Part shown: in pieces, positions 20,544-35,134 of the stretch
Position numbering within the stretch: the stretch's first letter is position 1
Layout of the letters: every line of letters begins with the position of its first letter
Assembly: GCF_016889705.1 (NCBI RefSeq)
Contig: NZ_CP069526.1
Span: 9,514,001 to 9,578,000, forward strand
From: Amycolatopsis sp. FDAARGOS 1241
GTDB taxonomy: Bacteria; Actinomycetota; Actinomycetes; Mycobacteriales; Pseudonocardiaceae
Direction of reading: 5' to 3'
DNA length: 64,000 bases
Notes under the pieces: generated by a model
Database searches by the model: none
Seen by the model: the letters and a program-made list of their open reading frames with translations, nothing else
Told to the model about the DNA's origin: nothing
Position numbers and translations under genes: made by a program

Positions 20544-22087
20544 CTACTCGGCGCCGAGGGCTGTCGCCGCCCGCACGCGCAGCTCGGTGAACTTCGCGTC
20601 GTCCTCGCGTGCCCGGCTCAGCTTCGACCCGACGACGCAGCCGAGGAAACCCAGCGGGATCGACACGAGCGTCGGGTAGTCCAGCGGGAACGGCGCGTGC
20701 GCCGCCCCGCCCGGCCACACGGCCGGGCTCAGCACGATCAGCACGATCAGCACCACCGAACTCACCAGCCCGCTCGCGATGCCCGTGAGTGCGCCCGCCG
20801 TGCCGCGCCACGACAATGCGAGCACCAGCGCCGGGAAGTTCGCGCTCGCCGCGACGGACAGCGCGAGCCCGACGAGGAACGCGACGTTGATGTTCGGTCC
20901 CGCCAGCAGCGTCACCGCCACCGCGATCGCCCCGATCACGGCCGACGACAGCCGCGCCACGAGCTTCTGCTCGCGTTCGGTCGCACCACCGCGGCGGATC
21001 ACGTTGGACCACAGGTCGTGCGACGCCGAGCCGGACGCCGAAAGCACCAGCCCCGCCACCACCGCGAGGATCGTCGCGAACGCGACCGCCCCGACGAACG
21101 CCGTGAACACCTGGCCGCCGAACGCGTCCGGCCCGCCGCCGAGGTGCTGCGCGAGCGGCGGCGCCGCGAGGTTCGCACCCGGCCCGGCGGGCTTCTCACC
21201 CGCGGACCCGAGCAGCGCGCGGGCGCCGTAGCCGATGATCGACGTCAGCACGAAGAACGTGCCGATCAGCCCGATCGCCCAGCCCACCGACGCGCGCGCC
21301 GTCTTCGCGTCCGGCACCGTGAAGAACCGGATCAGGATGTGCGGCAGGGCGGCAGTGCCGATCACGAACGCGACCGCCGCCGCGACCGTGTTCAGCGGGG
21401 TGCGGTGCGAGCCGCCGGGTGCGAGGTACGCGTCGCCGAGCGGGTGGGCCGCGGCGGCGCGGTCGAACAGGCTGATCGGGTTCCAGCCAACCTGGCTCAG
21501 CACCCCGATCGCCAGCGCGAGCCCGGCCGCCATCAGCAGCGCGGCCTTCATGATCTGCACCCACGTGGTCGCGAGCATGCCGCCGAACACCACATACAGG
21601 AGCATCGCCGCGCCCGTGAGGATCACCGCCGGTGTGACGTGAGCCCGCTCAGCGTCCGGATCAGCACACCGGAGCCGACCAGCTGCGCGATCAGGTAGAT
21701 GGTGACGATGAACAGGTTCGCCGACGCCGTCATCGCCCGCACCGGCCGCGCGCGCAACCGGTAGGACAGCACGTCGGCGACGGTGAGCTGGCCCGCGTTG
21801 CGCATGCGTTCGGCGAACAGCAGCAGCACGAGCAGGAACGCGACGGCCGCGGCGATCGCGAGCACCCAGCCGTCGAAGCCGCTGAGGAAGATCAGCGCGG
21901 TGAAGCCGAGGACCGTCGCCGCGGACATCAGGTCGCCCGCCACCGCGAAACCGTTCTGCGCCGCGGAGATCCCGCGGCCGGCGGCGAGGTATTCGGTGGT
22001 CGTGTTCGTCTTGCGGGCCGCGAAGAACGTGACCACCAGCGTCACCGCGATCAGCACCGCGAACGCGGTGAGCCGCACGGCGTTCAC
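20544..22087 (-). pseudogene. Acetate-type sodium:solute symporter (ActP-like), split by a frameshift
   Basis: A solute:sodium symporter of about 510 residues is read in two frames. The N-terminal part from GTG 22087 contains TFFAARKTNTTTEYLAAGR and QNGFAVAGDLMSAATVLG and runs out near 21640 after LIRTLSGLT. The rest (TPAVILTGAAMLLYVVFGG, GGMLATTWVQIMK, TALPHILIRFF) continues in another frame to 20544. Adding a single base near 21630 restores one protein, so this is a one-base deletion or a sequencing error. ActP-type proteins import acetate and other short acids. The GTG overlaps the stop of the DUF485 gene. Confidence 0.8.
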
Positions 22088-22394
22088 CGGGCCACCACCG
22101 CGGGTCGGCCGCGAGCGGCGGGCTCAAGCGGGTCGAACACCCGCGCCGTGCGGCGCAGGTACGCCCACGTGATGACCCCGACCAGCACGAACTGGCTCAG
22201 GCCCAGCCCGTACGCGAGCGTCAGGCCGCGGAACACCGACGAGCCCAGTGAGCCCGGCAGCCACGCGACGAGCACGAGGAACAGCGTGAAGCAGCCGAGG
22301 CCGGCCGTGAGCGCGACGGCCGCGAACCGGCGCCGCGACCGCACGAGCGTCTGGACGCCGGCGAGACTTCCACCAGCGCAAACTCAGTGTCCAC
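22084..22394 (-). pseudogene. DUF485 membrane protein, symporter partner, with probable N-terminal frameshift
   Basis: The open part (GTG 22344 to 22084) encodes 86 residues with two membrane spans, as in YjcH, which is cotranscribed with ActP. Upstream, the same frame continues as SLAGVQTLVRSRRRF without a start, while another frame starts at GTG 22394 as DTEFALVE. Inserting one base near 22367 joins them to DTEFALVE-SLAGVQTLV, which looks like the native N-terminus. The functional gene may therefore be broken, or translation may begin at 22344. Confidence 0.6.
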
Positions 22395-22551: not shown

Positions 22552-23157
22552 ATGGCTCCAGGGGCGGTCGGCAAGTCCGAAGCGAAGACGACGGTGAGCC
22601 CGGCTGCGGTCCGGGAAGCCGCACTCACGCTGTTCGCCGAGCGCGGCTACCACGGCACGGCGCTCAGCCAGATCGCGGCCGAGCTCAAGATCCGCACGCC
22701 CAGCCTGTACAACCACATGCGCGCCAAGCAGGACCTCCTGCGCGACATCGTCGCCGACACGACCGAACAGGTCTGGGCCGACTACGAGCAGGCGGTCGAG
22801 GGCGTCGACGACGTCGCCGAACGGCTGCGCAACGCGACCCGGGTGTACGCGCTGCGCCACGCCACCCACCGGCGCGAAGCCCTCATCGTCAACCGGGACA
22901 TCGCCAGCATCGAAGAGCCTGCCCGCAGCGAGGTCCTGGAGCTGCGCCGGCGCCACGCGCGGGCCATCAAGGACCTCATCGAGGAAGGCGTGAAGGCCGG
23001 CCGGTTCCACGAGGAGTCCTCGACGCTCGCGGCGTTCGGGATTCTCGAGATGTGCGTGAGCATCGCCCGGTGGTTCCGCGAAGACGGGCCACTTTCGCCT
23101 GAAGACGTGGCCGAGAAGTACAGCGAGTACGCCCTGCGCGTCGCCGGCTTGGGCTGA
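22552..23157 (+). CDS. TetR-family transcriptional regulator (copy 1)
   Basis: A regulator of 201 residues. The N-terminal helix-turn-helix reads ALTLFAERGYHGTALSQIA and IRTPSLYNHMRAKQDLL; the C-terminal ligand domain contains TRVYALRHATHRREALIVNRD and EMCVSIARWFRED. It is divergent from the DUF485-symporter genes and stands before an acyl-CoA synthetase. A close paralogue is encoded at 34454, at the other end of the same block. Both share nearly identical recognition helices, and the likely operator ACTAA-N6-TTAGT occurs in the adjacent promoters. Confidence 0.88.
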   Translation: MAPGAVGKSEAKTTVSPAAVREAALTLFAERGYHGTALSQIAAELKIRTPSLYNHMRAKQDLLRDIVADTTEQVWADYEQAVEGVDDVAERLRNATRVYALRHATHRREALIVNRDIASIEEPARSEVLELRRRHARAIKDLIEEGVKAGRFHEESSTLAAFGILEMCVSIARWFREDGPLSPEDVAEKYSEYALRVAGLG

Positions 23158-23212: not shown

Positions 23213-23264
23213 TTGCCCCGCCCCCTCGTGCTCTCTACACTCCAGCAACTAACTATCATTAGTT
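23213..23264 (+). promoter_or_regulatory. Promoter and TetR-type operator A (acyl-CoA synthetase)
   Basis: TTGCCC (23213-23218), 17 nt, TACACT (23236-23241), then the palindrome AACTAA-CTATCA-TTAGTT (23247-23264). Bound repressor would cover the transcription start. The same architecture recurs at 24850-24899 and 35078-35134. Confidence 0.7.
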
Positions 23265-23270
23265 AACCTC

Positions 23271-24833
23271 GTGATGGAGATGTCGATGCTCAGAGTCGAG
23301 TTGATCCGTCCCATCCCCCAGCTGCTGGTCGGGCACGCGGCGCGCTTCGGCGGCAAGGTCGCGTTCTACGACGACCGCCGATCGGTCACGTACGCGGACC
23401 TGGCGGAACGAACGCGGCGGCTCGCGGGGAACCTCGTGGACGAGGGCGTGGCACACGGCGACCGCGTGCTGATCTACCTGGACAACAGCGTGGAAACGGC
23501 CGAGGCGTACCTGCTGACCACCCGCCTGGGCGCCGTCGGGGTGTGCGCGAACCCGAACGCCGCGCCCGCGGAGGTGGCTTACCAGCTGGGCGACAGTGAT
23601 GCTCGCGTGGTGATCACCGACGACGCCCACCTCGACCACGTCCGCACGATGGTCGCGGCGCGGGGCGTCGACACGCTGGTCCTGCTGGTCACCGACGGTG
23701 CCGTCCCGCCGGACGCGCGGTCGTACGAGACGTTCGCGACCGCGGAACCGAAGAACGCGCCCCGCGACGACCTCGGCCTGGACGACGTCGCGTGGATGCT
23801 CTACACGTCCGGCACCACCGGCCGGCCCAAGGGCGTGCTGCTGACGCAACGCAGCTGCCTGTGGGTCGTCGCCGCGTGCTGGGCGCCGATCGTGGGGCTG
23901 ACGCCGGCCGACCGGGTGCTGTGCCCGCTGCCGCTGTTCCACTCGTACGCGCTGGACCTGTGCGTGCTCGGCGTCTTCGCGGTCGGCGCCACGGAACGGA
24001 TCCTGCCGCGGTTCACGACGTCGCGGGTGCTGGAACTGCTCACCAGTGAGCCGTTCACCTTCATGCCCGGCGTGCCCACGATGTTCCAGTACCTGCTCCA
24101 CGGCACCCGCGGAAAAGGCTTCCACAGCACCACGTTGCGCATGTGCGTCTCGGCCGGCGCGATCATGCCCGCCGCGCTCAACGCCGAGTTCGAGCAGGAG
24201 TTCGGCGTGCAGCTGCTGGAGGGCTACGGCATCACGGAAACGTCCACAATGGTCACCATGAACACGCCCGGCGGCGGGCGTGTGCTGGGCTCGTGCGGCC
24301 TGCCGCTGCCCGGCGTCGGCGTGCGGCTGGTGGACCCGGTGACCGGCGAGGACGTCGGCGTCGGTGAGGAGGGCGAGCTGTGGGTGAGCGGCCCGAACAT
24401 CATGCAGGGCTACCACAACCGAGCCGAGGCGAGCGCTGAGGCGCTGCACCTCGGCTGGTACCACACGGGTGACCTCGGCCGGCGCGACGCCAACGGGTTC
24501 CTCACGATTTCCGGGCGCACCAAGGAACTCATCATCCGCGGCGGCGAGAACATCTACCCGGCCGAAGTGGAGGCCGTGCTGCTGAAGGTCGCCGGCGTGG
24601 CCGACGCGGCCGTGGTCGCGCGCAAGCACGCCGACCTGGGTGAGGTTCCCGTCGCGTTCGTCGTGCCCGACGAGGCCGGCAAGGTCGACGAGCCGGCGCT
24701 GCTGGCCGCGTGCCGGCAGGAGCTGTCGCACTTCAAGGTGCCCGAGCAGATCCTCGAGATCGACGCGATCCCGCGCACCGGCTCGGGCAAGATCATGCGC
24801 TTCCGCCTGCAGGAACGCCTGATCGACGCATGA
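23271..24833 (+). CDS. Acyl-CoA synthetase (AMP-forming)
   Basis: An ANL-superfamily ligase of up to 520 residues. The ATP loop YTSGTTGRPKG, A5 motif EGYGITET, YHTGDLGRRDANGFL, ISGRTKELIIRGGENIYP and the C-terminal catalytic lysine in TGSGKIMR are all present. It activates a carboxylic acid as an acyl-CoA; chain or ring preference cannot be read. Several in-frame starts are close together (23271 GTG or ATG codons down to 23286); the exact one is uncertain. It has its own operator-controlled promoter and precedes the large operon that begins at 24912. Confidence 0.88.
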   Translation: MMEMSMLRVELIRPIPQLLVGHAARFGGKVAFYDDRRSVTYADLAERTRRLAGNLVDEGVAHGDRVLIYLDNSVETAEAYLLTTRLGAVGVCANPNAAPAEVAYQLGDSDARVVITDDAHLDHVRTMVAARGVDTLVLLVTDGAVPPDARSYETFATAEPKNAPRDDLGLDDVAWMLYTSGTTGRPKGVLLTQRSCLWVVAACWAPIVGLTPADRVLCPLPLFHSYALDLCVLGVFAVGATERILPRFTTSRVLELLTSEPFTFMPGVPTMFQYLLHGTRGKGFHSTTLRMCVSAGAIMPAALNAEFEQEFGVQLLEGYGITETSTMVTMNTPGGGRVLGSCGLPLPGVGVRLVDPVTGEDVGVGEEGELWVSGPNIMQGYHNRAEASAEALHLGWYHTGDLGRRDANGFLTISGRTKELIIRGGENIYPAEVEAVLLKVAGVADAAVVARKHADLGEVPVAFVVPDEAGKVDEPALLAACRQELSHFKVPEQILEIDAIPRTGSGKIMRFRLQERLIDA

Positions 24834-24911: not shown

Positions 24912-25526
24912 GTGGACCTCTCCAACACCTTCACCGTCGACCTGCCGGTCGAGGACGCCTGGCGCGTGCTGACGGACCTCGAGCGCGTCGCTCCGTGCCT
25001 GCCCGGTGCCGCGCTGCTCGGCGTCGAGAACGGCGTGTACCAGGGCGCGGTGAAGATCAAGGTGGGCCCAGTTTCGGCGAAGTACCAGGGCACGGCGCGT
25101 TTCGTCGAGAAGGACGAGACCGCTCACCGCGCGGTGTTGCGGGCCGAGGGCAAGGACGCCGGCGGCCAGGGCAACGCGGCCGCCACCGTCACCGCGACGC
25201 TCACCGCGCAGGGCAGCGGGACCACAGTGGACGTGCGCACCGACCTCGCCTTGTCGGGGCGGGTGGCGCAGTTCGGCCGCGGGGTGATCGCCGACGTCAC
25301 CGGCAAGCTCCTCGGCCAGTTCGTGCAGCGCCTCGAAGCGGAGGTCGCCGGCACCGTCCAGCGCATCAACGGCAAGCCGGTGAACCTCGACGAGGTCGAA
25401 CCGCTCGACGTGATGGCGAGCGTCGGCGGCACCGTCGCGAAGCGCGCGCTGCCTGTCGCGGCCGTGGCCCTGCTGCTGGCCGTGCTGGCGATCCTGGTGG
25501 CGCGCAAGGGAAAGGGGACACGATGA
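24912..25526 (+). CDS. CoxG-like SRPBCC protein with C-terminal membrane anchor
   Basis: A protein of 204 residues of the CO dehydrogenase subunit G (CoxG) family within the SRPBCC fold. LSNTFTVDLPVEDAWRVLTDLE and PCLPGAALLG are the family N-terminus, and VGPVSAKYQGTARF the central strand. A single hydrophobic segment near the end (ALPVAAVALLLAVLAILVA) suggests a membrane tether. CoxG proteins anchor molybdenum hydroxylases of the CO dehydrogenase family to the membrane, which fits the three-subunit hydroxylase encoded downstream in this operon. The stop overlaps the ALDH start. Confidence 0.85.
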   Translation: MDLSNTFTVDLPVEDAWRVLTDLERVAPCLPGAALLGVENGVYQGAVKIKVGPVSAKYQGTARFVEKDETAHRAVLRAEGKDAGGQGNAAATVTATLTAQGSGTTVDVRTDLALSGRVAQFGRGVIADVTGKLLGQFVQRLEAEVAGTVQRINGKPVNLDEVEPLDVMASVGGTVAKRALPVAAVALLLAVLAILVARKGKGTR

Positions 25527-26920
25527 GCGACCTGGTGCGGGAACCCCACCTCTATGTCGGCGGCCGGTGGATCGCCGGCGGTGGCAGCGACTGCGAGGTC
25601 GAGAACCCGGCCACCGAGGAGCCCGCCGGTGTCGTCACGCAGGCCTCGCCGGCCGTCGTGAACCTCGCGGTGGCCTCAGCGAACGCGGCGTTCGACGGCT
25701 GGTCCACCACGCCCGTCGCCGAGCGGGCCGCGGCCCTGCGGCGCCTGCACGACGTGATCTTGGAGCGTGCCGAGCGGTTCGCCGAGCTCATCACGCTCGA
25801 ACAGGGCTCGCCGCCGCCGGTGGCGCGGAAGTTGCACGTGGACACTCCACTGGCGGTGCTGGCCCGCACGGCCGACGCGCTGGAGCAGTTCGAGTTCCGC
25901 CGCGAACTCGGCAACTCCGTGATCCTGCGCGAGCCCGTCGGGGTCGTCGCCGCGATCACGCCGTGGAACCTGCCGCTGCACCAGATCATCGTCAAGGTCG
26001 TGCCTGCACTCGCCGCCGGCTGCACCGTGGTGCTCAAGCCGGCCGCGCTGACGCCGCTCACCGCGTTCGAGCTCATGCGCGCCTTCGAGGCCGCCGGTTT
26101 CCCGGCCGGCACGATCAACCTCGCCACCGGCAGCGGTGGTGACGTCGGCGACCAGCTGACGCGCAGCGTGGGCGTCGACCACGTGTCGTTCACCGGGTCC
26201 ACGCCGGTCGGCGCGCAGGTCGCGGCCGCCGCAGCGGAGACGATCAAGGGTGTCACGTTGGAGCTGGGCGGCAAGTCCGCCAGCGTCGTGCTGTCCGATG
26301 TGGACGATGCGCTGCTCGCCAAGGCCGTGAAGGTCACCGTGGCGAACTGCTACCTCAACGGCGGCCAGACGTGCACCGCGCTCTCGCGGCTGATCGTCCC
26401 GGCCGACCGGCTCGCGCAGGTGGAAGAACTGGCGGCCGCCGCCTCGGCGAAGTACGTCCCGGGCGAGCGGCTCGGTCCGCTCATCTCGGCCGGGCAGCGC
26501 AAGGAGGTCGAGAGCTTCCTCGCACCGGGTGAGGCGCGGGCCATCACCGGCCCGGTCGAGCTGCCGGACCGCGGCTACTACGTGCAGCCCACCGTCTACA
26601 GCGGAGTCGATCCCGACTCCCGGCTCGCGCAGGAGGAGGTTTTCGGGCCCGTCCTGGCGATTCTCGCCGCGAAGTCGGACGACGAAGCCATCGCCATCGC
26701 CAACAACTCGCGGTACGGGCTCGGCGGTGCACTGTGGACCGGCGACCCGGACCACGCGCTGGAGTACGCCGCGCGCATCCGCACCGGCCAGGTCGACGTG
26801 AACGGCGCGCCGTTCAACCCGCGCGCGCCGTTCGGCGGGTACAAGGCCTCAGGCGTCGGGCGCGAGATCGGCGACTACGGCATCGAAGACGTGCTCGAGA
26901 TCAAGGCGGTGCAGCTGTGA
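25523..26920 (+). CDS. Aldehyde dehydrogenase, NAD(P)-dependent
   Basis: An aldehyde dehydrogenase of 465 residues. The conserved PWNLPLHQ, the nucleotide loop FTGSTPVG, the general-base region LELGGKSA, the catalytic cysteine in NGGQTCTALSR and the EEVFGPV block are present. It would oxidise an aldehyde to the acid, which the nearby acyl-CoA synthetase could activate. It is coupled to its neighbours by 4-nt overlaps on both sides. Confidence 0.9.
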   Translation: MSDLVREPHLYVGGRWIAGGGSDCEVENPATEEPAGVVTQASPAVVNLAVASANAAFDGWSTTPVAERAAALRRLHDVILERAERFAELITLEQGSPPPVARKLHVDTPLAVLARTADALEQFEFRRELGNSVILREPVGVVAAITPWNLPLHQIIVKVVPALAAGCTVVLKPAALTPLTAFELMRAFEAAGFPAGTINLATGSGGDVGDQLTRSVGVDHVSFTGSTPVGAQVAAAAAETIKGVTLELGGKSASVVLSDVDDALLAKAVKVTVANCYLNGGQTCTALSRLIVPADRLAQVEELAAAASAKYVPGERLGPLISAGQRKEVESFLAPGEARAITGPVELPDRGYYVQPTVYSGVDPDSRLAQEEVFGPVLAILAAKSDDEAIAIANNSRYGLGGALWTGDPDHALEYAARIRTGQVDVNGAPFNPRAPFGGYKASGVGREIGDYGIEDVLEIKAVQL

Positions 26921-28005
26921 CCGAGATCAACGCGCTGGTCCTGCGGGAAACCGGCGCCCCGATGACCGTCGAGCGCATCCGGTTGCGCGACGTCGGGTCC
27001 AGTGACGTGCGGGTGCGCATCGACGCCACCGGTGTCTGCCACTCGGACCTGTCGCTGGCCCGCGGTGTGCTCGCGCAGGAGCTGCCGGCCGTGCTCGGCC
27101 ACGAAGCGTGCGGCACGGTGCTGGAGGCGGGTGCGGACGTCGCGGACCTGGCCGTCGGCGACCGCGTGATCCTGCTGTGGATCACGCCGTGCGGCGACTG
27201 CGTCCACTGTGGACGTGGAGAGGCGCACTTGTGCGTCAACGGGTCGTCGCGCGGCGCCGAACCGTATGCGGTGGACGCCGAAGGCAACCCCGTTTACGCG
27301 GGGCTGACGGTCGGCTCGTTCGCCGAGCAGACCGTCGTTCCGGCGGCGGCCGCGGTCAAGGTGCCTGATGACATCAGCTCGGCCGACGCCGCGCTGCTCG
27401 GCTGCGCGGTGACCACCGGCGTCGGCGCGGTCACGAAGACCGCGCGGGTCACGCCCGGGTCGTCCGTGCTGGTCGTCGGCCTCGGCGGCGTCGGACTGGC
27501 CGCGATCCAGGGCGCGAAGCTGGCCGGTGCGGGCACGGTGATCGCCGTGGACCGCAACGTCGCCAAGGCGGCTTACGCGACGAAACTCGGCGCCGATCAC
27601 TTCGTCCCGGCCGACGACACCACGAAGAAGGCCGTGCGCGCGCTGACTGGCGGTGAGGGCGTGGACTACGCGTTCGACTGCGTCGGCTCGGGCCGCACGA
27701 TCCGCGACGCGTGGGGGATGACGCGGCGCGGCGGCACCGCGTGCGTGGTCGGTGTCGGCGGCAAGGACGACCAGGTGTCCTTCAGCGCGCTGGAGCTGTT
27801 CCACTTCGCGCGCACGCTCGTCGGCTGCGTCGCGGGATCCCTCGACGCGGCCCACGACCTACCGCGCTACTTCGACGACGTCCGCGCCGGCCGGCTCGAC
27901 CTGGCCGCGATGGTGACCGGCCACGGTGGACTGCCGGACATCGAAGACGCCTTGACCGCCATGGCCGCGGGACAGGGTGTGCGGACGCTGGTGGTGCCGG
28001 CGTGA
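26917..28005 (+). CDS. Zinc-dependent alcohol dehydrogenase
   Basis: A medium-chain dehydrogenase of 362 residues. Catalytic zinc ligands lie in TGVCHSDLS and GHEACGTV, the structural zinc cysteines in PCGDCVHCGRGEAHLC, and the NAD loop in VVGLGGVGLAAIQGAK. It would convert an alcohol to the aldehyde used by the preceding gene product. The GTG start overlaps the ALDH stop, and its own stop overlaps the next GTG. Confidence 0.9.
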   Translation: MTEINALVLRETGAPMTVERIRLRDVGSSDVRVRIDATGVCHSDLSLARGVLAQELPAVLGHEACGTVLEAGADVADLAVGDRVILLWITPCGDCVHCGRGEAHLCVNGSSRGAEPYAVDAEGNPVYAGLTVGSFAEQTVVPAAAAVKVPDDISSADAALLGCAVTTGVGAVTKTARVTPGSSVLVVGLGGVGLAAIQGAKLAGAGTVIAVDRNVAKAAYATKLGADHFVPADDTTKKAVRALTGGEGVDYAFDCVGSGRTIRDAWGMTRRGGTACVVGVGGKDDQVSFSALELFHFARTLVGCVAGSLDAAHDLPRYFDDVRAGRLDLAAMVTGHGGLPDIEDALTAMAAGQGVRTLVVPA

Positions 28006-28796
28006 AGGTCGGAGCGCTCAGCATCGAACCGGTCTACGACGGCTACGGCCGCGAGCCCGGCCGCGAGGTCCTGACCCGCCCGGGCGAGGCCGACGCGTGG
28101 GCCTGCCACGAGCACCTGCTCGACGACCGCGGCGACCTCGACCTCACGCTCGGCGGGTTCCTTCTGCGCACGGGCGATCGCGTGGTGCTCATCGACGCCG
28201 GTGTCGGCACGATCGACAACGACAAGTACCACGGCGGCCGCTTCCTCGAAAGCCTGCGTGAGCACGGCGTCGCTCCCGAAGACGTGACCGACGTCGTGTT
28301 CACGCACCTGCACTTCGACCACGTCGGCTGGGCCACGAAGAAGGGCCAGGTCGTGTTCCCGAACGCGACCTACCGCGTGCACGCGGCCGACTGGGCGCAC
28401 TTCGTCGACAGCCCGGACGCCGAAGCCGGCGCCGTGCGGAAGCTGTCGCCCCTGGCCGATCGGCTGCAACCGTTCACCGAGGACACGACGCTCGCACCCG
28501 GCCTGGACACCCGCCACGTGCCCGGCCACACGCCCGGCTCGACGATCTTCATCGTGTCCAGTGAAGGCGAACGCGCGTTGCTCCTCGGCGACGTCGCACA
28601 CTCCACAGTGGAGCTGACCGACCCGACGTGGGAAGCGGTCTTCGACGTCGACCGCACGGCCGCCCGGCACGTGCGAGCGCGGTTGATCGGCGAGCTCACC
28701 GACAGCCCGGACGCGGTCGCCGCCGCGCACTTCCCCGGCCTGCGCTTCGGCCGGGTGGTGACCGTCGCCGGCGAGCGCCGGTTCGAGTTCATCTGA
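28002..28796 (+). CDS. Metallo-beta-lactamase-fold hydrolase (lactonase-like)
   Basis: A protein of 264 residues with the metal motif THLHFDHVGW, the third histidine in HVPGHTPGS, and the bridging aspartate in LLLGDVAHS. The DAGVGTIDND stretch ahead resembles AHL-lactonase and esterase-type members. It probably hydrolyses an ester, lactone or thioester intermediate of the pathway; the substrate is not identified. A 4-nt overlap couples it to the Zn-ADH gene. Confidence 0.82.
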   Translation: MKVGALSIEPVYDGYGREPGREVLTRPGEADAWACHEHLLDDRGDLDLTLGGFLLRTGDRVVLIDAGVGTIDNDKYHGGRFLESLREHGVAPEDVTDVVFTHLHFDHVGWATKKGQVVFPNATYRVHAADWAHFVDSPDAEAGAVRKLSPLADRLQPFTEDTTLAPGLDTRHVPGHTPGSTIFIVSSEGERALLLGDVAHSTVELTDPTWEAVFDVDRTAARHVRARLIGELTDSPDAVAAAHFPGLRFGRVVTVAGERRFEFI

Positions 28797-28807
28797 AAGG
28801 GGACCCC

Positions 28808-29572
28808 GTGGACCTCAAGCTCAACGGCAAGAACGTGCTGGTCACCGGCGCGGGCCAAGGACTCGGCCGCGCGATCGGGATGGCGTTCGCGCAGGAGGGT
28901 GCCAACGTCGCCTTCCACTACAACACCTCGGCCGACGGTGCCGAAGCCGGGGCGAAGGAAGCGGCTGCGCTCGGCGTGAAGGCCATCGCGGTGGGCGCGA
29001 ACCTGCGCGACGGTGACTCCGTGCGCACCGCGGTCGACGACGTCACGGCGCAGCTCGGCTCGATCGACGTGCTGGTCAACAACGCGGCGGCCACGCAGAG
29101 CAAGCCGTTCCTCGAGACGACCGAGGAGGACTGGGACCCGCAGATCGGCGTCACCGTGGCCGGCACGCTGCGGATCACGCAGGCCGTGGCCAAGAAGATG
29201 GTCGAGAGCGGCGGCGGCGCCATCGTGAACCTCATGGGCGATTCCGGCCGTGTCGGCGAATCGCGGCTGCTGGTCACCGCCACCACACGCTCGACCACGG
29301 TCGGCCTGACCAAGTCGCTCGCGAAGGAGCTGGCGCGCCACGGGATCCGGGCCAACGCCGTGTCCATCGCGCTGGTCCAGACGTCCAGTTTGGACGACCA
29401 CACCGGACACGCCGACGACGCCAAGATGAAGAAGATCCTGTCCGCCTACCCGTTGCGCCGCCTCGGCCGTCCCGAGGACGTGGTGCCGACCGTGCTGCTG
29501 CTGGCCTCCCCGCTCTCGTCCTGGACCACCGGGCAGATCGTGTCGGTCAACGGCGGCTACACGATGCCGTGA
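28808..29572 (+). CDS. SDR-family protein lacking the YxxxK catalytic pair
   Basis: A short-chain dehydrogenase fold of 254 residues. The cofactor motif TGAGQGLGRAIG, the NNAA segment (VLVNNAAATQ) and the C-terminal TGQIVSVNGGYTMP are normal. At the active site, where family members have YxASK before GLTKSLAKEL, this protein reads TATTRSTTVGLTKSL, so both the catalytic tyrosine and lysine appear replaced. It may bind nucleotide without ordinary SDR chemistry or use another residue. It begins 11 nt after the MBL gene and overlaps the large molybdenum-subunit gene. Confidence 0.82.
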   Translation: MDLKLNGKNVLVTGAGQGLGRAIGMAFAQEGANVAFHYNTSADGAEAGAKEAAALGVKAIAVGANLRDGDSVRTAVDDVTAQLGSIDVLVNNAAATQSKPFLETTEEDWDPQIGVTVAGTLRITQAVAKKMVESGGGAIVNLMGDSGRVGESRLLVTATTRSTTVGLTKSLAKELARHGIRANAVSIALVQTSSLDDHTGHADDAKMKKILSAYPLRRLGRPEDVVPTVLLLASPLSSWTTGQIVSVNGGYTMP

Positions 29573-31899
29573 CGGCGGTGGAGGAGCCGGCCGCGGGCGC
29601 CATCGGCAAGGTGGTGCGGCGCAAGGAGGACGCCCGGCTGATCACCGGCCGCGGCCGGTACGTGTCCGACCTGCAGCTGCCGCGGATGCGGCACGTCGCG
29701 TTCCTGCGCAGCCCGTTCGGCCACGCGCGGATCACCCGGCTCGACGCGGCTGCCGCGCGGGAACGGGCGGACGTGTTCACCGGGGACCAGCCCGAGTTCG
29801 CGAACGTGCCGCTGCGGGCGCTCTCGGCGCTGCCGTCCTACGTGGAGACCGAACAGCCGTTGCTCGCACGGGACAAGGTGCGGTTCGCGGGCGAACCCGT
29901 GGCCGCCGTCGTCGCCGCCGACCGCTACCGCGCCGAAGACGCGCTGGAGCTGATCGACGTCGACTACGAGCCGCTGCCCGTGAACGTCACGGCGTGGCTG
30001 CCGGTGACCGAACCGCTGCACGCCGAGGCGCCGGACAACGTGCTGCTCGAGCGCACCTTCGACACGGGTGAGGTGCCCGCCGCGCTGGCCTGTGCCGACC
30101 TCGTCGTCGAACGCGAGCTGATCACCAACCGGCACGCCGGCAACCCGATGGAGTGCCGGGCGGGGGTCGCGCTGTGGGACCCGGTCGACGACAAGCTGAC
30201 GCTGTGGTCGGGCACGCAGGTCCCGCACATCGCGCGCAACATGATCGCCGAGCTGCTCGGTATCCCCGAAGGCAACGTGCGCGTGATCGCGCCCGACGTC
30301 GGCGGCGGATTCGGCGTGAAAGCCGTGGTGTACCCGGAGGACGTCGCGCTGTGCGTCATCGCGCGGCAGCTGCGCGGCACGCCCGTGAAGTGGGTCGAGG
30401 ACCGCGCCGAGCACCTGCTCGCGGCCACGCACGCGCGTGATCACCGCTACGTCGTCAAGGCCGGTTTCACCGCCGACGGCGAACTGATGGCGCTCGACGC
30501 GGACGTGACCTGCAACGTCGGCGCATACTCCGTCTACCCCTGGACGGCCGGGATCGAACCGCTGATGGCCGGCGGTCTGCTGTCCGGGCCGTACCGGCTG
30601 CAGCACTACCGCTGCACCGTGCGCGGGGTCGCGACGAACACCGCGCCGTCCGGCCCGTACCGCGGGGTCGCCCGACCGGCGAGCGTGTTCGCGATGGAGT
30701 CGGTGCTCGACGCGGCGGCCGCCGAGCTGGGGATGTCCGGTGTGGACATCCGGCGGCGCAACCTGATCCGGCCGGAGGAAATCCCGTACCGCATGCCGTC
30801 GCGGCTGGTCGACGATTCGGGCTGGTACGGCGAATGCCTCGAGAAGGCCGTCGAATCGATCGGGTACGACGAGTTCCGCGCCGAACAGCAGCGCCGGCGC
30901 ACCCAGGGCGAGAATCCGATCGGCCTGGGGCTGGCCTGTTACAACGAGCTCACCGGCCTGGGCCGGGCGGCCGCGGCCGGCCCGCGGATGCCGTTCCGCA
31001 CCGGCCACGACGCGTGCACCGTGCGCGTCAACCCCGACGGCCGGGTCACCGTGCTGTCCGGCGTGACGTCGCAGGGGCAAGGCCTGGAAACGACCGTGGC
31101 GCAGATCGTCGCGGACGCCGTCGGGGTGCCGTATTCGGACGTCGAGGTGCGCATCGGCGACACCAACGAATCGTTGTGGGGCTTCGGCGCGTTCTCCTCG
31201 CGCCAGGCCGTGATCGGCGGCGGCGCGGCGCACCGTTCCGCGATCGCCGTGCGGGAGAAGATCATTCGGCTCGCCTCGGAGCTGTACGAAGCGAACCCGG
31301 ACGACCTCAGGCTCGTGAACGGCGAGGTGTTCGTCGTCGGCGAGGCCAAGCCGCTCGGCACGCTGGGCGAGCTCGCCCGCGTGGCGTACCTGGAGTCGAA
31401 CCGGCTGCCGGACGGCATCGAGCCCGGCCTGGAGTCGACGCAGTTCTACGACCCGATCCGCGGCGCGTTCGCGGCCGGCGCGCAGGCGGCGGTCGTCGAG
31501 GTCGACCGGGCGACGGGCGAGCTGAAGATCCTCAAGTACGTGTGCGTCGAGGACGCCGGCACGGTGATCAACCCGCAGGTCGTCGAGGGGCAGATCGCCG
31601 GGTCGATCGCGCAGGGCATCGGCGGCGCGCTGTACGAGCACCTCATCTACGACGAGGGCGGCAACCTCTCCACGGGCACGCTCATGGACTACCTCATGCC
31701 GACGAGCGCCGAGGTGCCCGAGCTCGTGATCGGCCACCTGTCGCACCCGGCGGACAACCCGCTGGGCGTGCGCGGCGTCGGCGAGGGCGGCACGCTCGGC
31801 CCGAACGCCGTGCTCGCGGGCGCGGTCGCCGACGCGCTCGGTGTGCAGATCACGCACCTGCCGCTGACCCCGGCCGCGATCTGGGAGGCGGTTCGATGA
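29569..31899 (+). CDS. Molybdopterin-binding large subunit, xanthine-dehydrogenase/CoxL family hydroxylase
   Basis: A protein of 776 residues with the order of the aldehyde oxidase/xanthine dehydrogenase a/b-hammerhead domain (VVRRKEDARLITGRGRYVSDL) and the molybdenum-cofactor domains. Visible cofactor motifs are PDVGGGFGVKA, GPYRGVARP, GVTSQGQGLETTVAQ and the C-terminal GVGEGGTLGP with the probable catalytic glutamate. The AYRCSFR loop of form I CO dehydrogenase is absent, so this is a form II or other hydroxylase, not a proven CO dehydrogenase. It would hydroxylate a carbon of an aromatic ring, N-heterocycle or aldehyde. Confidence 0.87.
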   Translation: MTAVEEPAAGAIGKVVRRKEDARLITGRGRYVSDLQLPRMRHVAFLRSPFGHARITRLDAAAARERADVFTGDQPEFANVPLRALSALPSYVETEQPLLARDKVRFAGEPVAAVVAADRYRAEDALELIDVDYEPLPVNVTAWLPVTEPLHAEAPDNVLLERTFDTGEVPAALACADLVVERELITNRHAGNPMECRAGVALWDPVDDKLTLWSGTQVPHIARNMIAELLGIPEGNVRVIAPDVGGGFGVKAVVYPEDVALCVIARQLRGTPVKWVEDRAEHLLAATHARDHRYVVKAGFTADGELMALDADVTCNVGAYSVYPWTAGIEPLMAGGLLSGPYRLQHYRCTVRGVATNTAPSGPYRGVARPASVFAMESVLDAAAAELGMSGVDIRRRNLIRPEEIPYRMPSRLVDDSGWYGECLEKAVESIGYDEFRAEQQRRRTQGENPIGLGLACYNELTGLGRAAAAGPRMPFRTGHDACTVRVNPDGRVTVLSGVTSQGQGLETTVAQIVADAVGVPYSDVEVRIGDTNESLWGFGAFSSRQAVIGGGAAHRSAIAVREKIIRLASELYEANPDDLRLVNGEVFVVGEAKPLGTLGELARVAYLESNRLPDGIEPGLESTQFYDPIRGAFAAGAQAAVVEVDRATGELKILKYVCVEDAGTVINPQVVEGQIAGSIAQGIGGALYEHLIYDEGGNLSTGTLMDYLMPTSAEVPELVIGHLSHPADNPLGVRGVGEGGTLGPNAVLAGAVADALGVQITHLPLTPAAIWEAVR

Positions 31900-32567
31900 T
31901 CACGTCCGAGATCCGCGACGACGTGGGCGTCATCGCCCTCGACCGGCACGAACGGCGCAACGCGCTGGACGTCGAGCACCTCGACGACCTGCGCAAGGCG
32001 GTCGAAGACGTCGGCCCGCGGGTGCGTGCGCTCGTCATCACCGGGCGGGGCACGAGCTTCTGCGCCGGGGCCGACCTGCGCGGTGTCCACGGCGCCGGCT
32101 TCCGGAGCGCGCTCTACGCCGCCCTGCACAGCATCACCGCGCTGCCCGTGCCGGTGCTCGCGGCCGTCAACGGGCCGGCGATCGGCGCCGGGACGCAGCT
32201 GGCGATCGCGTGTGACCTGCGGGTGGCCTCGCCGTCCGCCGTGTTCGCGGTGCCGACCGCGCGCAACGGCCTGGTCGTGGACCCGTGGACGGTGCGCCGG
32301 CTCGCCTTGCTCGCCGGCGGGGGCGCCGCGCGGGCGATGCTCCTGGGCTGTGACCGGCTCGACGCTTCGCTGGCCCACACCCGCGGGCTCGTCGACCGGC
32401 TCGGCGACTTCGACGACGCTTTCGCGTGGGCGAGCGAGATCGCCGAGTTCTCGCCATCGTCGTTGCGGTACTCGAAACAAGCGCTCGACACGCTGTTCGA
32501 AGGTGCCTGGACTGCCACCCTGGACGATCTTTTCGAAGCGAGCTGGCCGAAGGAGGTGCCGACGTGA
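31896..32567 (+). CDS. Crotonase-family protein, short and lacking catalytic glutamates
   Basis: An enoyl-CoA hydratase/isomerase-fold protein of 223 residues, shorter than the usual 255-260. The oxyanion pieces SFCAGADLRG and NGPAIGAGTQLAIACDLR are recognisable. In hydratases the second reads GGGCEL and is followed by a second glutamate in a PE segment; here those positions are Q (GTQL) and TA (VPTARNGLV). Simple hydration is therefore doubtful, and another crotonase reaction such as CoA-ester hydrolysis or ring cleavage is possible. It lies between the large and FAD subunit genes. Confidence 0.8.
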   Translation: MITSEIRDDVGVIALDRHERRNALDVEHLDDLRKAVEDVGPRVRALVITGRGTSFCAGADLRGVHGAGFRSALYAALHSITALPVPVLAAVNGPAIGAGTQLAIACDLRVASPSAVFAVPTARNGLVVDPWTVRRLALLAGGGAARAMLLGCDRLDASLAHTRGLVDRLGDFDDAFAWASEIAEFSPSSLRYSKQALDTLFEGAWTATLDDLFEASWPKEVPT

Positions 32568-33382
32568 AACCCGCCCCGTTCGACTACGTCCGTGCGCACA
32601 GCGTCGACGAGGCCGTGCGGACGCTCGCCGACGCCGACGGGGACGGCAAGGTCCTCGCCGGCGGGCAGAGCCTGATGCCGGTGCTCGCGTTGCGCATGGC
32701 CCGGCCGCGTGTGCTCGTGGACGTCAACCGCATCCCCGGCCTGGCCACGATCACGCCCACCGACGGCGGCGTCCGGCTGGGCGCACTGGTGCGGCACGCG
32801 CGGCTGCTCGAACAGCAGCACCACCCGTTGCTGGCCGAGGCCGCGCGCTGGATCGGGCACACGGCGATCCGCACGCGCGGCACGAGCGGCGGCAGCATCG
32901 CGCACGCCGACCCGTCGGCCGAACTGCCGGTGGTCGCGGCGGCGCTGGAGGCGACCGTCCACATCGCCGGACCGACCGGTCGACGGTCCGAAGTGGCTAC
33001 GGACTTCTTCGCCGGGCCACTGGAAACCACGCTCGCCGACGACGAGCTGATCACCGCCGTGGACCTGCCGGTGCCGCAGCGCTGGGGGTTCGCGGAGTTT
33101 TCCCGGCGCCACGGCGACTTCGGGCTCGTGCTCGTGGCCGCGGCGGAGGTCGCGGGCCGGTGGCGGCTGGCGATCGGCGGCGTCGGCGGGGTCCCGCTGC
33201 GGCCCGCGGAAGCCGAACAGCTGCTGAACGACGGCGCGGGCGTCGACGCGGTCGCGGCCGCCGCGGCGGCGGAAACCCGGCCGCAGAGCGATATCCACGC
33301 GTCGGCCGACTACCGGCGGGCGATGACGGCGGAGTTCGTCCGCCGCGCCCTGGCGCCCCACGGAAAGCGAGCCGCCGCATGA
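32564..33382 (+). CDS. FAD-binding medium subunit of molybdenum hydroxylase (CoxM-like)
   Basis: A protein of 272 residues in the CO dehydrogenase flavoprotein family. The FAD-binding motifs LAGGQSLMPVLALRM and TRGTSGGSIAHADPSAELP are intact. It lacks the extra iron-sulfur loop found in the 4-hydroxybenzoyl-CoA reductase beta subunit. It passes electrons from the small iron-sulfur subunit to the final acceptor. Overlaps of 4 nt link it to both neighbours. Confidence 0.88.
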   Translation: MKPAPFDYVRAHSVDEAVRTLADADGDGKVLAGGQSLMPVLALRMARPRVLVDVNRIPGLATITPTDGGVRLGALVRHARLLEQQHHPLLAEAARWIGHTAIRTRGTSGGSIAHADPSAELPVVAAALEATVHIAGPTGRRSEVATDFFAGPLETTLADDELITAVDLPVPQRWGFAEFSRRHGDFGLVLVAAAEVAGRWRLAIGGVGGVPLRPAEAEQLLNDGAGVDAVAAAAAAETRPQSDIHASADYRRAMTAEFVRRALAPHGKRAAA

Positions 33383-33846
33383 GAGCCGAGTTCACCGTCA
33401 ACGGCACCCGCCACGACGTCGACGTCGAACCGCGCCGCACGCTCGCCGACGCGCTGCGCGAGGACCTCGGCCTGACGGGCACGCACCTGGGCTGCGAGCA
33501 CGGCGTCTGCGGCGCGTGCACCGTGCTGGTCGACGGTGAGCCCGTGCGCGCGTGCCTGATGCTCGCCGTGCAGGCCGACGGGTGCTCCGTCAGCACCGTC
33601 GAAGGGCTGGCGGCCGACGACGGCACGCTGCACCCGTTGCAGGAAGCGTTTTGCGCGAAGCACGGGCTCCAATGCGGCTTCTGCACGCCCGGCATGCTGA
33701 TGACGGCGCTCGACCTGCTGGACCGCGAACCGGCGCCGGACCGCGAACGCATCCGCGAGGAGCTGTCCGGCAACATCTGCCGCTGCACGGGTTACGTCGG
33801 CATCGTCGACGCGGTGGAAGCCGCCGCGCGCGAGCTGAACCCGTGA
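33379..33846 (+). CDS. [2Fe-2S] small subunit of molybdenum hydroxylase (CoxS-like)
   Basis: A protein of 155 residues with the plant-type cluster cysteines in GCEHGVCGACTVLVDG and C-L-M, and the second cluster cysteines in CGFCTPGMLM and GNICRCTGYVGIV. These two [2Fe-2S] centres carry electrons between molybdopterin and FAD. With the large and FAD subunits it completes a three-component hydroxylase, though the gene order is large, crotonase, medium, small. Confidence 0.92.
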   Translation: MRAEFTVNGTRHDVDVEPRRTLADALREDLGLTGTHLGCEHGVCGACTVLVDGEPVRACLMLAVQADGCSVSTVEGLAADDGTLHPLQEAFCAKHGLQCGFCTPGMLMTALDLLDREPAPDRERIREELSGNICRCTGYVGIVDAVEAAARELNP

Positions 33847-34457
33847 GGACCGCCGCGTGGCTGCGGCTCACCGGCGTGCCGGCCGACGCCGCGCGCAAGA
33901 CCTGGCGCGAGCTGGACCGGCACGGCTGCGCCACGCTCTACGTCGACGGTGACCTCAGCCTGTGCGCGGCGCTCGCGGTCGAGACCACCACCGCCCGCAT
34001 CTGCTGCTTCGTGCCGCTGGGCCGGCCGGAACACGTGCTGGCCGGGGCGCGCACCGTGCAGTACCTCAGCGCCGGCCGGTTCACCCTCGGGCTGCGCCCG
34101 GCGGATGACGACGACGGGCCGTTCGGGTCTGTCACCGGGTGCGCGCGCCTGGCCGAGGAGGTGCGGGCGGTGCTGGGCCCGTTGCCGATCACCGTCGCCG
34201 GGACGGGCCGGGGTAGCGTGCGGTTGGCGGCCGAATTCGCGACCTGCTGGCAGACCACGGACGTTCCGGGTGAACCGGACGCACTCGCCGCGCACTGCGC
34301 GGAGTTCGGCCGGCCGGTGCCGGAGAGATCCGTGGTCACGACCGGCGCGCGGCGGTGCGAGGTCGCCGCCGACGAGGTGGTGCTGCCGGTCGACCGGCCG
34401 CTGACGGGTGCCGAGTTCCTCGGCACCGCCGGGCTCGTGACGGGGAGGAACTGGTGA
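33843..34457 (+). CDS. Short luciferase-like (LLM-type) flavin protein, function unclear
   Basis: A protein of 204 residues, well below the 280-340 of complete luciferase-like monooxygenases. The segments LAGARTVQYLSAGRFTLGLRP, CARLAEEVRAVLGPLPITVAG and RLAAEFATCWQTTDVPGEP follow the LLM pattern of the F420/FMN-dependent family. The N-terminal flavin region is reduced. It may be a degenerate or compact family member. It is coupled by overlaps to the iron-sulfur subunit and the TetR gene, which argues that it is still translated. Confidence 0.55.
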   Translation: MRTAAWLRLTGVPADAARKTWRELDRHGCATLYVDGDLSLCAALAVETTTARICCFVPLGRPEHVLAGARTVQYLSAGRFTLGLRPADDDDGPFGSVTGCARLAEEVRAVLGPLPITVAGTGRGSVRLAAEFATCWQTTDVPGEPDALAAHCAEFGRPVPERSVVTTGARRCEVAADEVVLPVDRPLTGAEFLGTAGLVTGRNW

Positions 34458-35050
34458 CGGCAGCGCGCAGCGCGGTCAGCGAAGAGGCCGTGCTCGACAC
34501 GGCGCTCACGCTGTTCGCCGAGCGGGGGTACCACGGCACCGCGCTCAGCCAGATCGCAGAGGTGCTGCAGATCCGCACGCCCAGCCTGTACAACCACATG
34601 CGGTCCAAAGAGGACTTGCTGCGGGCCATCGTGGACCGGACCACCGCGGCGGTGCTCGAGGACTTCGAGCGCGTGACCGGCGAGGACGACGACTGGACGG
34701 GGCAGCTGGCGCGCGCCACACGCGTGTACGCCTTCCGCCACGCCACGCACCGGCGCGAAGCCCTGGTGGTCAACCGGGACACCGACTGCCTCGGCGAACC
34801 GCATCGCACGCAGTTCCAGGCCCGCCGCCGGCGCCACGAGCACGCGTTCCGCGCGATCATCGCGTGCGGCGCCGACGCGGGGGTGTTCCACGTGGACTCG
34901 CCGGCGCTCGCGTCGTTCGCCATCCGCGAGATGTGCGTGAGCATCGCGCGCTGGTTCCGGGACCACGGTGCCATGACAGCCGACTCCGTGGCCGACGAGT
35001 ACAGCCGCTACGCGTTGCAGATCGTGGGTTCGCAAACCGGGCATCGGTAA
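34454..35050 (+). CDS. TetR-family transcriptional regulator (copy 2)
   Basis: A regulator of 198 residues closely similar to the one at 22552: LTLFAERGYHGTALSQIAE, IRTPSLYNHMRSKEDLL, TRVYAFRHATHRREALVVN and REMCVSIARWFRDHG are shared with few changes. The GTG overlaps the preceding stop, so it is the last gene of the eleven-gene operon and would control its own expression through operator B. The near-identical recognition helices suggest both regulators read the same operator, perhaps with different inducers. Confidence 0.88.
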   Translation: MTAARSAVSEEAVLDTALTLFAERGYHGTALSQIAEVLQIRTPSLYNHMRSKEDLLRAIVDRTTAAVLEDFERVTGEDDDWTGQLARATRVYAFRHATHRREALVVNRDTDCLGEPHRTQFQARRRRHEHAFRAIIACGADAGVFHVDSPALASFAIREMCVSIARWFRDHGAMTADSVADEYSRYALQIVGSQTGHR

Positions 35051-35077: not shown

Positions 35078-35134
35078 TTGACTCTTCCCGTTCCCGTTGC
35101 TTTGATATATGCCACTAACGAACGATAGTTAGTG
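35078..35134 (+). promoter_or_regulatory. Promoter and double TetR-type operator C
   Basis: TTGACT (35078-35083) and TTGATA (35102-35107), 18 nt apart, are followed by CACTAAC (35113-35119), 8 nt, GTTAGTG (35128-35134), a perfect palindrome. It can be read as two overlapping ACTAA-N6-TTAGT sites shifted by 4 nt, each with one mismatch. It stands before the broken beta-lactamase-family gene. Confidence 0.65.

What the first reader, a model, noticed from the sequence alone, without database searches (positions are those of the whole stretch)
24912..35050. Eleven-gene translationally coupled catabolic operon with a molybdenum hydroxylase
Every junction but one is a 4-nt start/stop overlap (the exception is an 11-nt gap), so the products should be made in fixed proportion. 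The set is CoxG anchor, ALDH, Zn-ADH, lactonase-like MBL, atypical SDR, Mo-hydroxylase large subunit, atypical crotonase, FAD subunit, iron-sulfur subunit, short luciferase-like protein and TetR. With the upstream acyl-CoA synthetase this reads as alcohol-aldehyde-acid-CoA thioester processing combined with ring or C-H hydroxylation and ester/lactone opening. I know no described pathway with this exact set, and CO dehydrogenase is unlikely because the form I active-site loop is absent. This is my best candidate for an undescribed system.
Basis: partly seen in the sequence, partly recalled or inferred. Interest (0 to 1): 0.78.

Follow-up and report, generated by a model that had tools for sequence, protein, structure and literature searches.

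The report
Bacterial furan-acid degradation regulon, probably
A tightly packed set of bacterial genes, with relatives in soil actinobacteria and on plasmids of root-nodule bacteria, probably breaks down a small ring-shaped acid (best guess 3-furoic acid) into a four-carbon compound; its chemistry has not been tested.

Summary
The eleven genes are there as described: nine of ten junctions are 4-nt overlaps and one is an 11-nt gap. The functional unit is larger: one palindrome stands before the upstream acyl-CoA synthetase (ACS) and before CoxG (4 matches, 0.02 expected; a stricter form has only these two places in the 9.8-Mb genome). The core (ACS, SDR, MBL, CoxG, three-subunit Mo-hydroxylase, usually a crotonase) recurs in 45 actinobacterial loci. 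SDR, ACS and Mo-hydroxylase also occur in 19 of 19 plasmid records of rhizobia, Agrobacterium and Aminobacter. Relatives show the exit: 15 of 15 non-elkanii records hold a thioesterase, and the six clusters read through add an iron-ADH and a succinate-semialdehyde dehydrogenase; the two Bradyrhizobium elkanii clusters read carry a 4-hydroxybutyryl-CoA-dehydratase-like protein instead. The SDR has lost Tyr and Lys, the crotonase both catalytic Glu, and the MBL resembles lactonases and methyl parathion hydrolase. Best reading: acyl-CoA, Mo-hydroxylation to an enol-lactone, reduction, lactone opening, decarboxylation, 4-hydroxybutyryl-CoA, succinate. Furan-3-carboxylate fits the parts, but substrate and reactions are inference. 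CO dehydrogenase is rejected; the 2-furoate (hmf) pathway is nearest in logic.

The parts
20544..22087 (-). sodium:solute symporter (SSF) permease, in two pieces (20544-21626 and 21623-22087); membership probable
   Evidence: PF00474 on both pieces; an SSF match in 15 of 45 orthologous loci, directly before ACS in e.g. L028; no SSF match in the stretches of six other Amycolatopsis
22084..22344 (-). DUF485 partner of the permease
   Evidence: PF04341; paired with SSF in relatives
22552..23157 (+). TetR1 repressor
   Evidence: PF17932 and PF00440; upstream of ACS in 6 of 6 other Amycolatopsis loci examined
23248..23263 (.). operator ACTAACTATCATTAGT before ACS
23271..24833 (+). acyl-CoA synthetase
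   Evidence: PF00501/PF13193; 50-51% identical to ACS of the plasmid clusters
24884..24899 (.). operator ACTAACGTTAATTAGT before CoxG
   Evidence: site with at most 1 mismatch within 160 nt of CoxG in 25 of 28 testable orthologous loci
24912..25526 (+). CoxG
   Evidence: PF06240
25523..26920 (+). aldehyde dehydrogenase
   Evidence: PF00171; best NCBIfam TIGR04284, below cut-off
26917..28005 (+). zinc alcohol dehydrogenase
   Evidence: PF08240/PF00107
28002..28796 (+). MBL-fold lactonase-like hydrolase
   Evidence: PF00753; AF2 model pLDDT 92.9, best Foldseek hit reconstructed lactonase ancestor 5hif, TMq 0.85, followed by methyl parathion hydrolases
28808..29572 (+). SDR with Tyr and Lys of the YxxxK motif replaced
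29569..31899 (+). Mo-hydroxylase large subunit
   Evidence: PF02738, PF20256, PF01315; best solved sequence relatives quinoline 2-oxidoreductase 1t3q (550 bits) and CoxL 8uem (532 bits)
31896..32567 (+). crotonase-fold protein, EchA6-like
   Evidence: NCBIfam NF005891 254 bits, cut-off 237; 5dtp 183 bits
32564..33382 (+). FAD subunit
   Evidence: PF00941, PF03450
33379..33846 (+). [2Fe-2S] subunit
   Evidence: PF01799, PF00111
33843..34457 (+). short luciferase-like protein, an Amycolatopsis addition among the loci examined
   Evidence: weak PF00296 below cut-off; 3 of 45 loci, all Amycolatopsis
34454..35050 (+). TetR2
   Evidence: PF17932 and PF00440
35114..35133 (.). operator-like palindrome after TetR2 (two overlapping matches, 1 mismatch each)

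Best explanation
A TetR-controlled catabolic regulon for an imported small heteroaromatic monocarboxylic acid, most likely furan-3-carboxylate (3-furoate). Proposed steps: a permease takes up the acid; in some genomes ADH and ALDH may make it from the alcohol and aldehyde; ACS makes the CoA thioester; the Mo/FAD/2Fe-2S hydroxylase (with CoxG) puts water's oxygen on the electrophilic ring carbon, giving an enol-lactone; the Tyr/Lys-less SDR adds hydride to this strongly activated double bond, which needs little acid catalysis; the MBL lactonase opens the alpha-substituted gamma-butyrolactone to (2-hydroxyethyl)malonyl-CoA; the Glu-less crotonase decarboxylates it to 4-hydroxybutyryl-CoA; thioesterase, ADH and SSADH (or 4-hydroxybutyryl-CoA dehydratase) carry it to succinate or crotonyl-CoA. 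Shown by sequence: gene set, shared operator, lost catalytic residues, co-occurring C4 enzymes. Inferred: the substrate, the order of steps, the TetR as binder, and every reaction.
For: One palindrome before ACS and CoxG; its stricter form has 2 places in the genome. In L019, L021, L033, L036, L047 and L093 three sites with at most one mismatch flank ACS (with ADH and ALDH), DUF485-SSF and thioesterase/CoxG, so the C4-type enzymes look co-regulated. Core in the 33 loci with enough flank: SDR, MoL, FAD, FeS 33, MBL 32, ACS 30, ECH 29, CoxG 26. Plasmid clusters add thioesterase, iron-ADH and SSADH in the six read through, adenylate kinase in four of them; the SSADH tested (L091) is above the TIGR01780 cut-off; 15 of 15 non-elkanii records hold the thioesterase. 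B. elkanii has instead a protein matching 6vjr at 797 bits and 1u8v at 574 bits (cluster read in 2 of its 4 records, same protein accession). SDR: Arg for Lys in 40 of 40 rows, no Tyr in any (YxxxK enzymes for comparison). Crotonase lacks both Glu. MBL nearest to lactonases and methyl parathion hydrolase. A lactonase rather than an amidase points to an O-heterocycle, and a C5 furan-3-acid losing CO2 gives exactly C4 (inference).
Against: No substrate, expression or product data. The window's cluster has no thioesterase, iron-ADH or SSADH-family ALDH; its ALDH scores 300 bits against TIGR01780 (cut-off 646), so the C4 exit is inferred from relatives. The L021 ALDH is also below that cut-off (539) and the plasmid iron-ADH is above no cut-off. 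No MBL match in the flank held for L041, L042, L044 and L048, and ECH is missing in 4 of 33 loci with enough flank. The window's MBL and crotonase are only about 29-31% identical to those of R. etli, possibly different enzymes. The operator is not found in L089 or L099 and once with one mismatch in L091: the plasmid clusters are regulated otherwise. No paper found says 3-furoate is catabolised this way; '3-furoyl-CoA' occurs in 0 papers.
Confidence: 0.4

Rival explanations
1. Same regulon logic and same C4 exit, but a different substrate: another acid whose CoA thioester is hydroxylated by the Mo enzyme and leaves as 4-hydroxybutyryl-CoA or a similar hydroxyacyl-CoA.
For: The comparative evidence fixes the exit better than the entry. 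The permease, the ABC transporters and the ACS do not name a substrate.
Against: Few acids give C4 by lactone opening; I thought of no rival substrate that uses every part (reasoning, not a search).
Confidence: 0.33
2. A variant of the known hmf pathway: 2-furoate (from furfuryl alcohol and furfural by ADH and ALDH) to 2-furoyl-CoA, 5-hydroxylation by the Mo enzyme, lactone opening by MBL, thioester cleavage by the crotonase to 2-oxoglutarate.
For: Same enzyme classes as hmfABCDE: ACS, three-subunit Mo dehydrogenase, HmfE hydrolase, and a lactone hydrolysis without an assigned gene (passages of PMC6678421 and PMC12064950).
Against: 2-Oxoglutarate needs no thioesterase, 4-hydroxybutyrate or succinate-semialdehyde enzymes, yet these sit in the same clusters; no role for the SDR. 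HmfA was not compared (searches gave no hmf cluster).
Confidence: 0.15
3. A C4 diol/lactone operon: ADH and ALDH oxidise 1,4-butanediol-type compounds, MBL opens gamma-butyrolactone, ACS activates 4-hydroxybutyrate, and the Mo enzyme is an aldehyde oxidoreductase.
For: MBL lactonase likeness; C4 enzymes in relatives; FAD and FeS subunits score best with glyceraldehyde dehydrogenase models, below cut-off.
Against: L042 and L044 keep ACS next to SDR and Mo-hydroxylase with no ADH, ALDH or MBL match in the flank held (2.4 and 4.5 kb upstream), so these three seem to be the working unit; ACS plus thioesterase would be futile.
Confidence: 0.08
4. An aerobic CO dehydrogenase (form II) operon.
For: CoxG and CoxL/M/S-like subunits; second-best solved relative is CoxL 8uem, 532 bits; many homologues are named CO dehydrogenase by their sources.
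Against: Active-site loop reads PYRGVARP, not the recalled AYxCSFR; CODH models TIGR02416 541.5 of 991 and NF040766 659.5 of 950 bits; ACS, SDR and crotonase have no role in CO oxidation.
Confidence: 0.02

Closest known systems
hmfABCDE 2-furoate pathway (Cupriavidus basilensis HMF14 and pseudomonads)
   Same: acid to CoA thioester, three-subunit Mo-dependent ring hydroxylation, lactone stage, crotonase-family enzyme (family of HmfE recalled)
   Different: no SDR, MBL or 4-hydroxybutyrate module in the passages seen; ends at 2-oxoglutarate
quinoline 2-oxidoreductase large subunit (1t3q)
   Same: best sequence match among solved structures to the large subunit, 550 bits
   Different: acts on a free N-heterocycle; no ACS partner (recalled)
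EchA6 crotonase-fold protein
   Same: crotonase above the NF005891 cut-off; both lack the canonical Glu pair (positions recalled)
   Different: lies inside a catabolic operon with a Mo-hydroxylase
AidC, LrsL and methyl parathion hydrolase-ancestor lactonases
   Same: fold (TMq 0.82-0.88 in the first ten hits) and HxHxDH metal motif
   Different: substrate unknown; below the AidB equivalog cut-off (117.6 of 360 bits)
gamma-butyrolactone / 4-hydroxybutyrate utilisation (blc-type; recalled)
   Same: MBL lactonase plus iron-ADH and SSADH genes in the plasmid relatives
   Different: here with ACS, Mo-hydroxylase, SDR and crotonase

Membership tests
form I aerobic CO dehydrogenase | AYxCSFR active-site loop with Cys (motif recalled) | tested here: not met
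   sequence reads PSGPYRGVARPAS
form I aerobic CO dehydrogenase | CoxL equivalog score | tested here: not met
   TIGR02416 541.5 of 991 bits
xanthine-oxidase-family Mo-hydroxylase | Mo-pterin large, FAD and [2Fe-2S] subunits | tested here: met
hmf 2-furoyl-CoA pathway | ACS + three-subunit Mo dehydrogenase + crotonase-family enzyme in one cluster | tested here: met
hmf 2-furoyl-CoA pathway | large subunit orthologous to HmfA | not tested
   no HmfA sequence obtained; attempt failed
hmf 2-furoyl-CoA pathway | product 2-oxoglutarate | tested here: inconclusive
   C4 enzymes in relatives argue against; no assay
classical SDR dehydrogenase | catalytic YxxxK | tested here: not met
   no Tyr in any row, Arg for Lys in 40 of 40, against YxxxK enzymes
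enoyl-CoA hydratase | two catalytic Glu (positions recalled; both present in 9qwv) | tested here: not met
   Thr and Ala in the window, Ala and Arg in R. etli
EchA6-like crotonase (NF005891) | equivalog cut-off 237 bits | tested here: met
   254 bits
AHL-lactonase-like MBL | HxHxDH metal motif and lactonase-type fold | tested here: met
   motif in 19 of 19 aligned sequences
AHL-lactonase-like MBL | AidB equivalog score | tested here: not met
   117.6 of 360 bits
AHL-lactonase-like MBL | lactone hydrolysis | not testable with these tools
   needs an assay

The most novel reading that the evidence does not exclude
An undescribed CoA-dependent pathway for furan-3-carboxylate, in which a Mo-hydroxylase makes an alpha-thioester butenolide, a repurposed SDR without Tyr/Lys reduces it, an AHL-lactonase-type enzyme opens the resulting lactone and a Glu-less crotonase decarboxylates it to 4-hydroxybutyryl-CoA; shared by actinobacteria and plasmids of rhizobia and their kin.
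Probability: 0.35. Interest if true: 0.75.

Novelty: new variant of a known kind. Interest (0 to 1): 0.58.

Why it matters
It would give a testable function to a conserved clade of Mo-hydroxylases now often named CO or xanthine dehydrogenase, explain a family of SDRs that cannot work by the textbook mechanism, and link soil actinobacteria and symbiotic plasmids through one furan-acid pathway. The operator gives a ready inducer screen.

Tried and rejected
CO dehydrogenase reading: rejected, although CoxL 8uem is the second-best solved relative. Beta-oxidation reading of SDR and crotonase: rejected because catalytic residues are missing. N-heterocycle: disfavoured because no amidase or deaminase recurs in the clusters read. 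Finding HmfA by context in 70 genomes of the order of a Burkholderiales record (19 of 70 with a match; 30 loci looked at, six stretches fetched): led nowhere. Pattern for the SDR motif: first version missed a genome known to hold an ortholog; the corrected one hit 1 of 337 genomes of the class of G001, locus not followed, so the cluster is rare there or the pattern too strict. Flanks: one search listed gene calls of nine loci; searches scanned 19 of those genes, from seven of the nine loci, plus one window gene; no recurring substrate clue. SDR model only pLDDT 75.3, with residues 145-153 below 50, so no fold search was made with it. Window ALDH and ADH as upper or lower pathway enzymes: undecided. 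Window-type and Nocardia-type ADH were not found together in any of the 45 loci, which fits either exchange or separate roles; L012 has the window-type pair plus a 39% thioesterase match and a second ALDH.
Full report
OBSERVATION. The eleven genes at 24912-35050 (+) are present with the stated junctions: nine 4-nt overlaps and one 11-nt gap of ten. Several of the same junctions overlap in orthologous loci, for example ALDH-ADH in 22 of 22 and MoL-ECH in 34 of 37; others do not, for example ECH-FAD in 2 of 37.

BOUNDARIES. Two exact copies of a palindrome, ACTAA-N6-TTAGT, stand at 23248 (before ACS) and 24884 (before CoxG). With up to one mismatch 4 matches occur in the window against 0.02 expected. 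The stricter form AACTAAN6TTAGTW has exactly these two places in the whole 9.8-Mb genome. In the 45 orthologous loci a site with at most one mismatch lies within 160 nt of the start of CoxG in 25 of 28 loci that could be tested and of ACS in 13 of 31. In all 45 loci together there are 34 exact sites, against 0.2 in first-order Markov sequences of the same composition. ACS, TetR1 and the Mo-hydroxylase operon are therefore most likely one regulon, with a promoter of its own before CoxG. That TetR1 or TetR2 is the binder is inference. The permease is linked by position and by operators in relatives (15 of 45 loci have an SSF match), not by an operator in the window, and six other Amycolatopsis stretches show no SSF match.

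DISTRIBUTION. A scan with the large subunit returned the best 80 of 122 confirmed relatives; 45 (L009-L053) are 68-83% identical and the other 35 at most 44%, so these 45 are treated as orthologues. In the 33 with at least 6.5 kb upstream and 2.5 kb downstream: SDR, MoL, FAD, FeS 33; MBL 32; ACS 30; ECH 29; TetR 28; CoxG 26; ADH 21; ALDH 19; LLM 3 (identity thresholds set per gene; the other 12 loci have less flank). In the genus, 7 of 60 genomes hold the SDR orthologue, own genome included. The six others hold the rest of the set, with a TetR2 match in five of six and a full-length LLM match in two of six, partial in four (two of the six are probably L009 and L043 again). The luciferase-like gene is thus an Amycolatopsis addition among the loci examined.

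PLASMID RELATIVES. A rearranged version lies on plasmids of Rhizobium, Sinorhizobium, Agrobacterium, Aminobacter and Bradyrhizobium elkanii. ACS is 51%, SDR 43%, FeS 59%, FAD 40% and MoL 40% identical between R. etli and the window; MBL (29% over 118 aa) and crotonase (31%) are more distant. The SDR search lists 19 records at 62% identity or more: four B. elkanii and 15 others. All 19 also hold the ACS and a Mo-hydroxylase large subunit (16 in the listing, the other three). The same 15 hold the thioesterase. I read the cluster through in six of the 15 (L091, L097, L099, L100, L101, L144) and partly in a seventh (L094). The six each have CoxG, crotonase, N-acyl-homoserine-lactonase-family MBL, iron-containing ADH and SSADH; four have adenylate kinase; two (L099, L144) have a further ADH and ALDH. 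The SSADH of L091 is above the TIGR01780 cut-off (722 against 646 bits), while its iron-ADH is above no cut-off. Two of the four B. elkanii regions were read. L089 gives no match to the Aminobacter thioesterase, iron-ADH or SSADH and carries a protein whose best solved relatives are vinylacetyl-CoA isomerase 6vjr (797 bits) and 1u8v (574 bits; recalled as 4-hydroxybutyryl-CoA dehydratase); L140 has the same protein accession.

NOCARDIA-TYPE LOCI. A thioesterase 40-52% identical to the Aminobacter one lies in L019, L021, L033, L036, L040, L047 and L093 (and a 39% match in L012). The L021 ALDH is 49% identical to the R. etli SSADH and its best model is SSADH, below the cut-off (539 of 646 bits). 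Operators stand before ACS, near the permease genes and between thioesterase and CoxG in L019, L021, L033, L036, L047 and L093. Two alternative routes away from 4-hydroxybutyryl-CoA in otherwise similar clusters are the strongest clue to the product.

ODD ENZYMES. The SDR keeps its nucleotide-binding motif in the actinobacterial rows that reach it, but has no Tyr and has Arg for Lys at YxxxK in all 40 rows, some of them truncated, with a conserved [MV]GDS[GS]R[VI]GE stretch. The crotonase lacks both catalytic Glu in window and R. etli; in the window it is EchA6-like. The MBL has an invariant HLHFDH in 19 of 19 aligned sequences, a confident model and lactonase or methyl-parathion-hydrolase relatives.

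MECHANISM. Proposed: 3-furoate to 3-furoyl-CoA (ACS); C2 hydroxylation by the Mo enzyme to the alpha-thioester butenolide; hydride addition by the SDR, where the doubly activated alkene makes Tyr/Lys dispensable; lactone opening by MBL, some of whose relatives use alpha-substituted gamma-butyrolactones; decarboxylation of the malonyl half-thioester by the crotonase; 4-hydroxybutyryl-CoA. Each step is inferred from family and residue evidence; none is shown. In the window ADH and ALDH may make the acid from its alcohol or may serve the exit; sequence does not decide. R. etli and R. gallicum have two such pairs, which shows the two roles could coexist.

COMPARISON WITH THE KNOWN. The hmf pathway is the nearest in logic (passages of PMC6678421 and PMC12064950). 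PMC6678421 says no gene was assigned to lactone hydrolysis there; PMC12064950 lists a putative hydrolase for it. It differs by the SDR, the MBL and the C4 exit. I could not obtain HmfA for a direct test. In the library searched '3-furoyl-CoA' occurs in no paper and '3-furoic acid' in 77; of the 25 listed none was about bacterial catabolism by its title. Combined searches gave nothing on point among the papers listed. One listed paper reports 3-furoic acid in alfalfa by mass (passages of PMC8533172); mass alone does not separate it from 2-furoic acid.

VERDICT. Real and conserved, with sequence evidence for one regulon; function class well supported, exit compound fairly supported, substrate a bold inference.

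Noticed in passing
20544-22087: The SSF permease gene is in two overlapping pieces in different frames, while L028 has one intact 519-aa gene; either a broken gene or a sequencing error. Left as it is.
   Followed up: partly
35238-36262: Serine hydrolase (PF00144 on 35534-36262) whose signal-peptide-like start seems to lie in another frame (ORF 35238-35612); perhaps also broken.
   Followed up: no
35114-35133: A further operator-like palindrome beyond TetR2, with no clear target gene.
   Followed up: no
G000 whole genome: 21 MoCoBD_1 matches, two of them in one frame, so many Mo-hydroxylase systems besides this one.
   Followed up: no
plasmid hits H66-H74, H79-H81: The window's ACS is about 53-58% identical to a stretch of Streptomyces plasmids, annotated in several records as type I polyketide synthase, perhaps a loading domain for a similar acid.
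   Followed up: no
L013 15937-17127, L048 4921-6108: A divergent thiolase-like gene beside the operon in two distant actinobacteria.
   Followed up: no
L141 (Azospirillum sp. TSA2s plasmid p3): Related thioesterase plus iron-ADH beside ACS, MaoC, SDR and thiolase genes, no Mo-hydroxylase annotated in the stretch shown; perhaps another route to the same hydroxyacid.
   Followed up: no
plasmid hits H117-H120: R. leguminosarum and R. ruizarguesonis plasmids match only 58% of the thioesterase; shortened or decayed version of the cluster.
   Followed up: no
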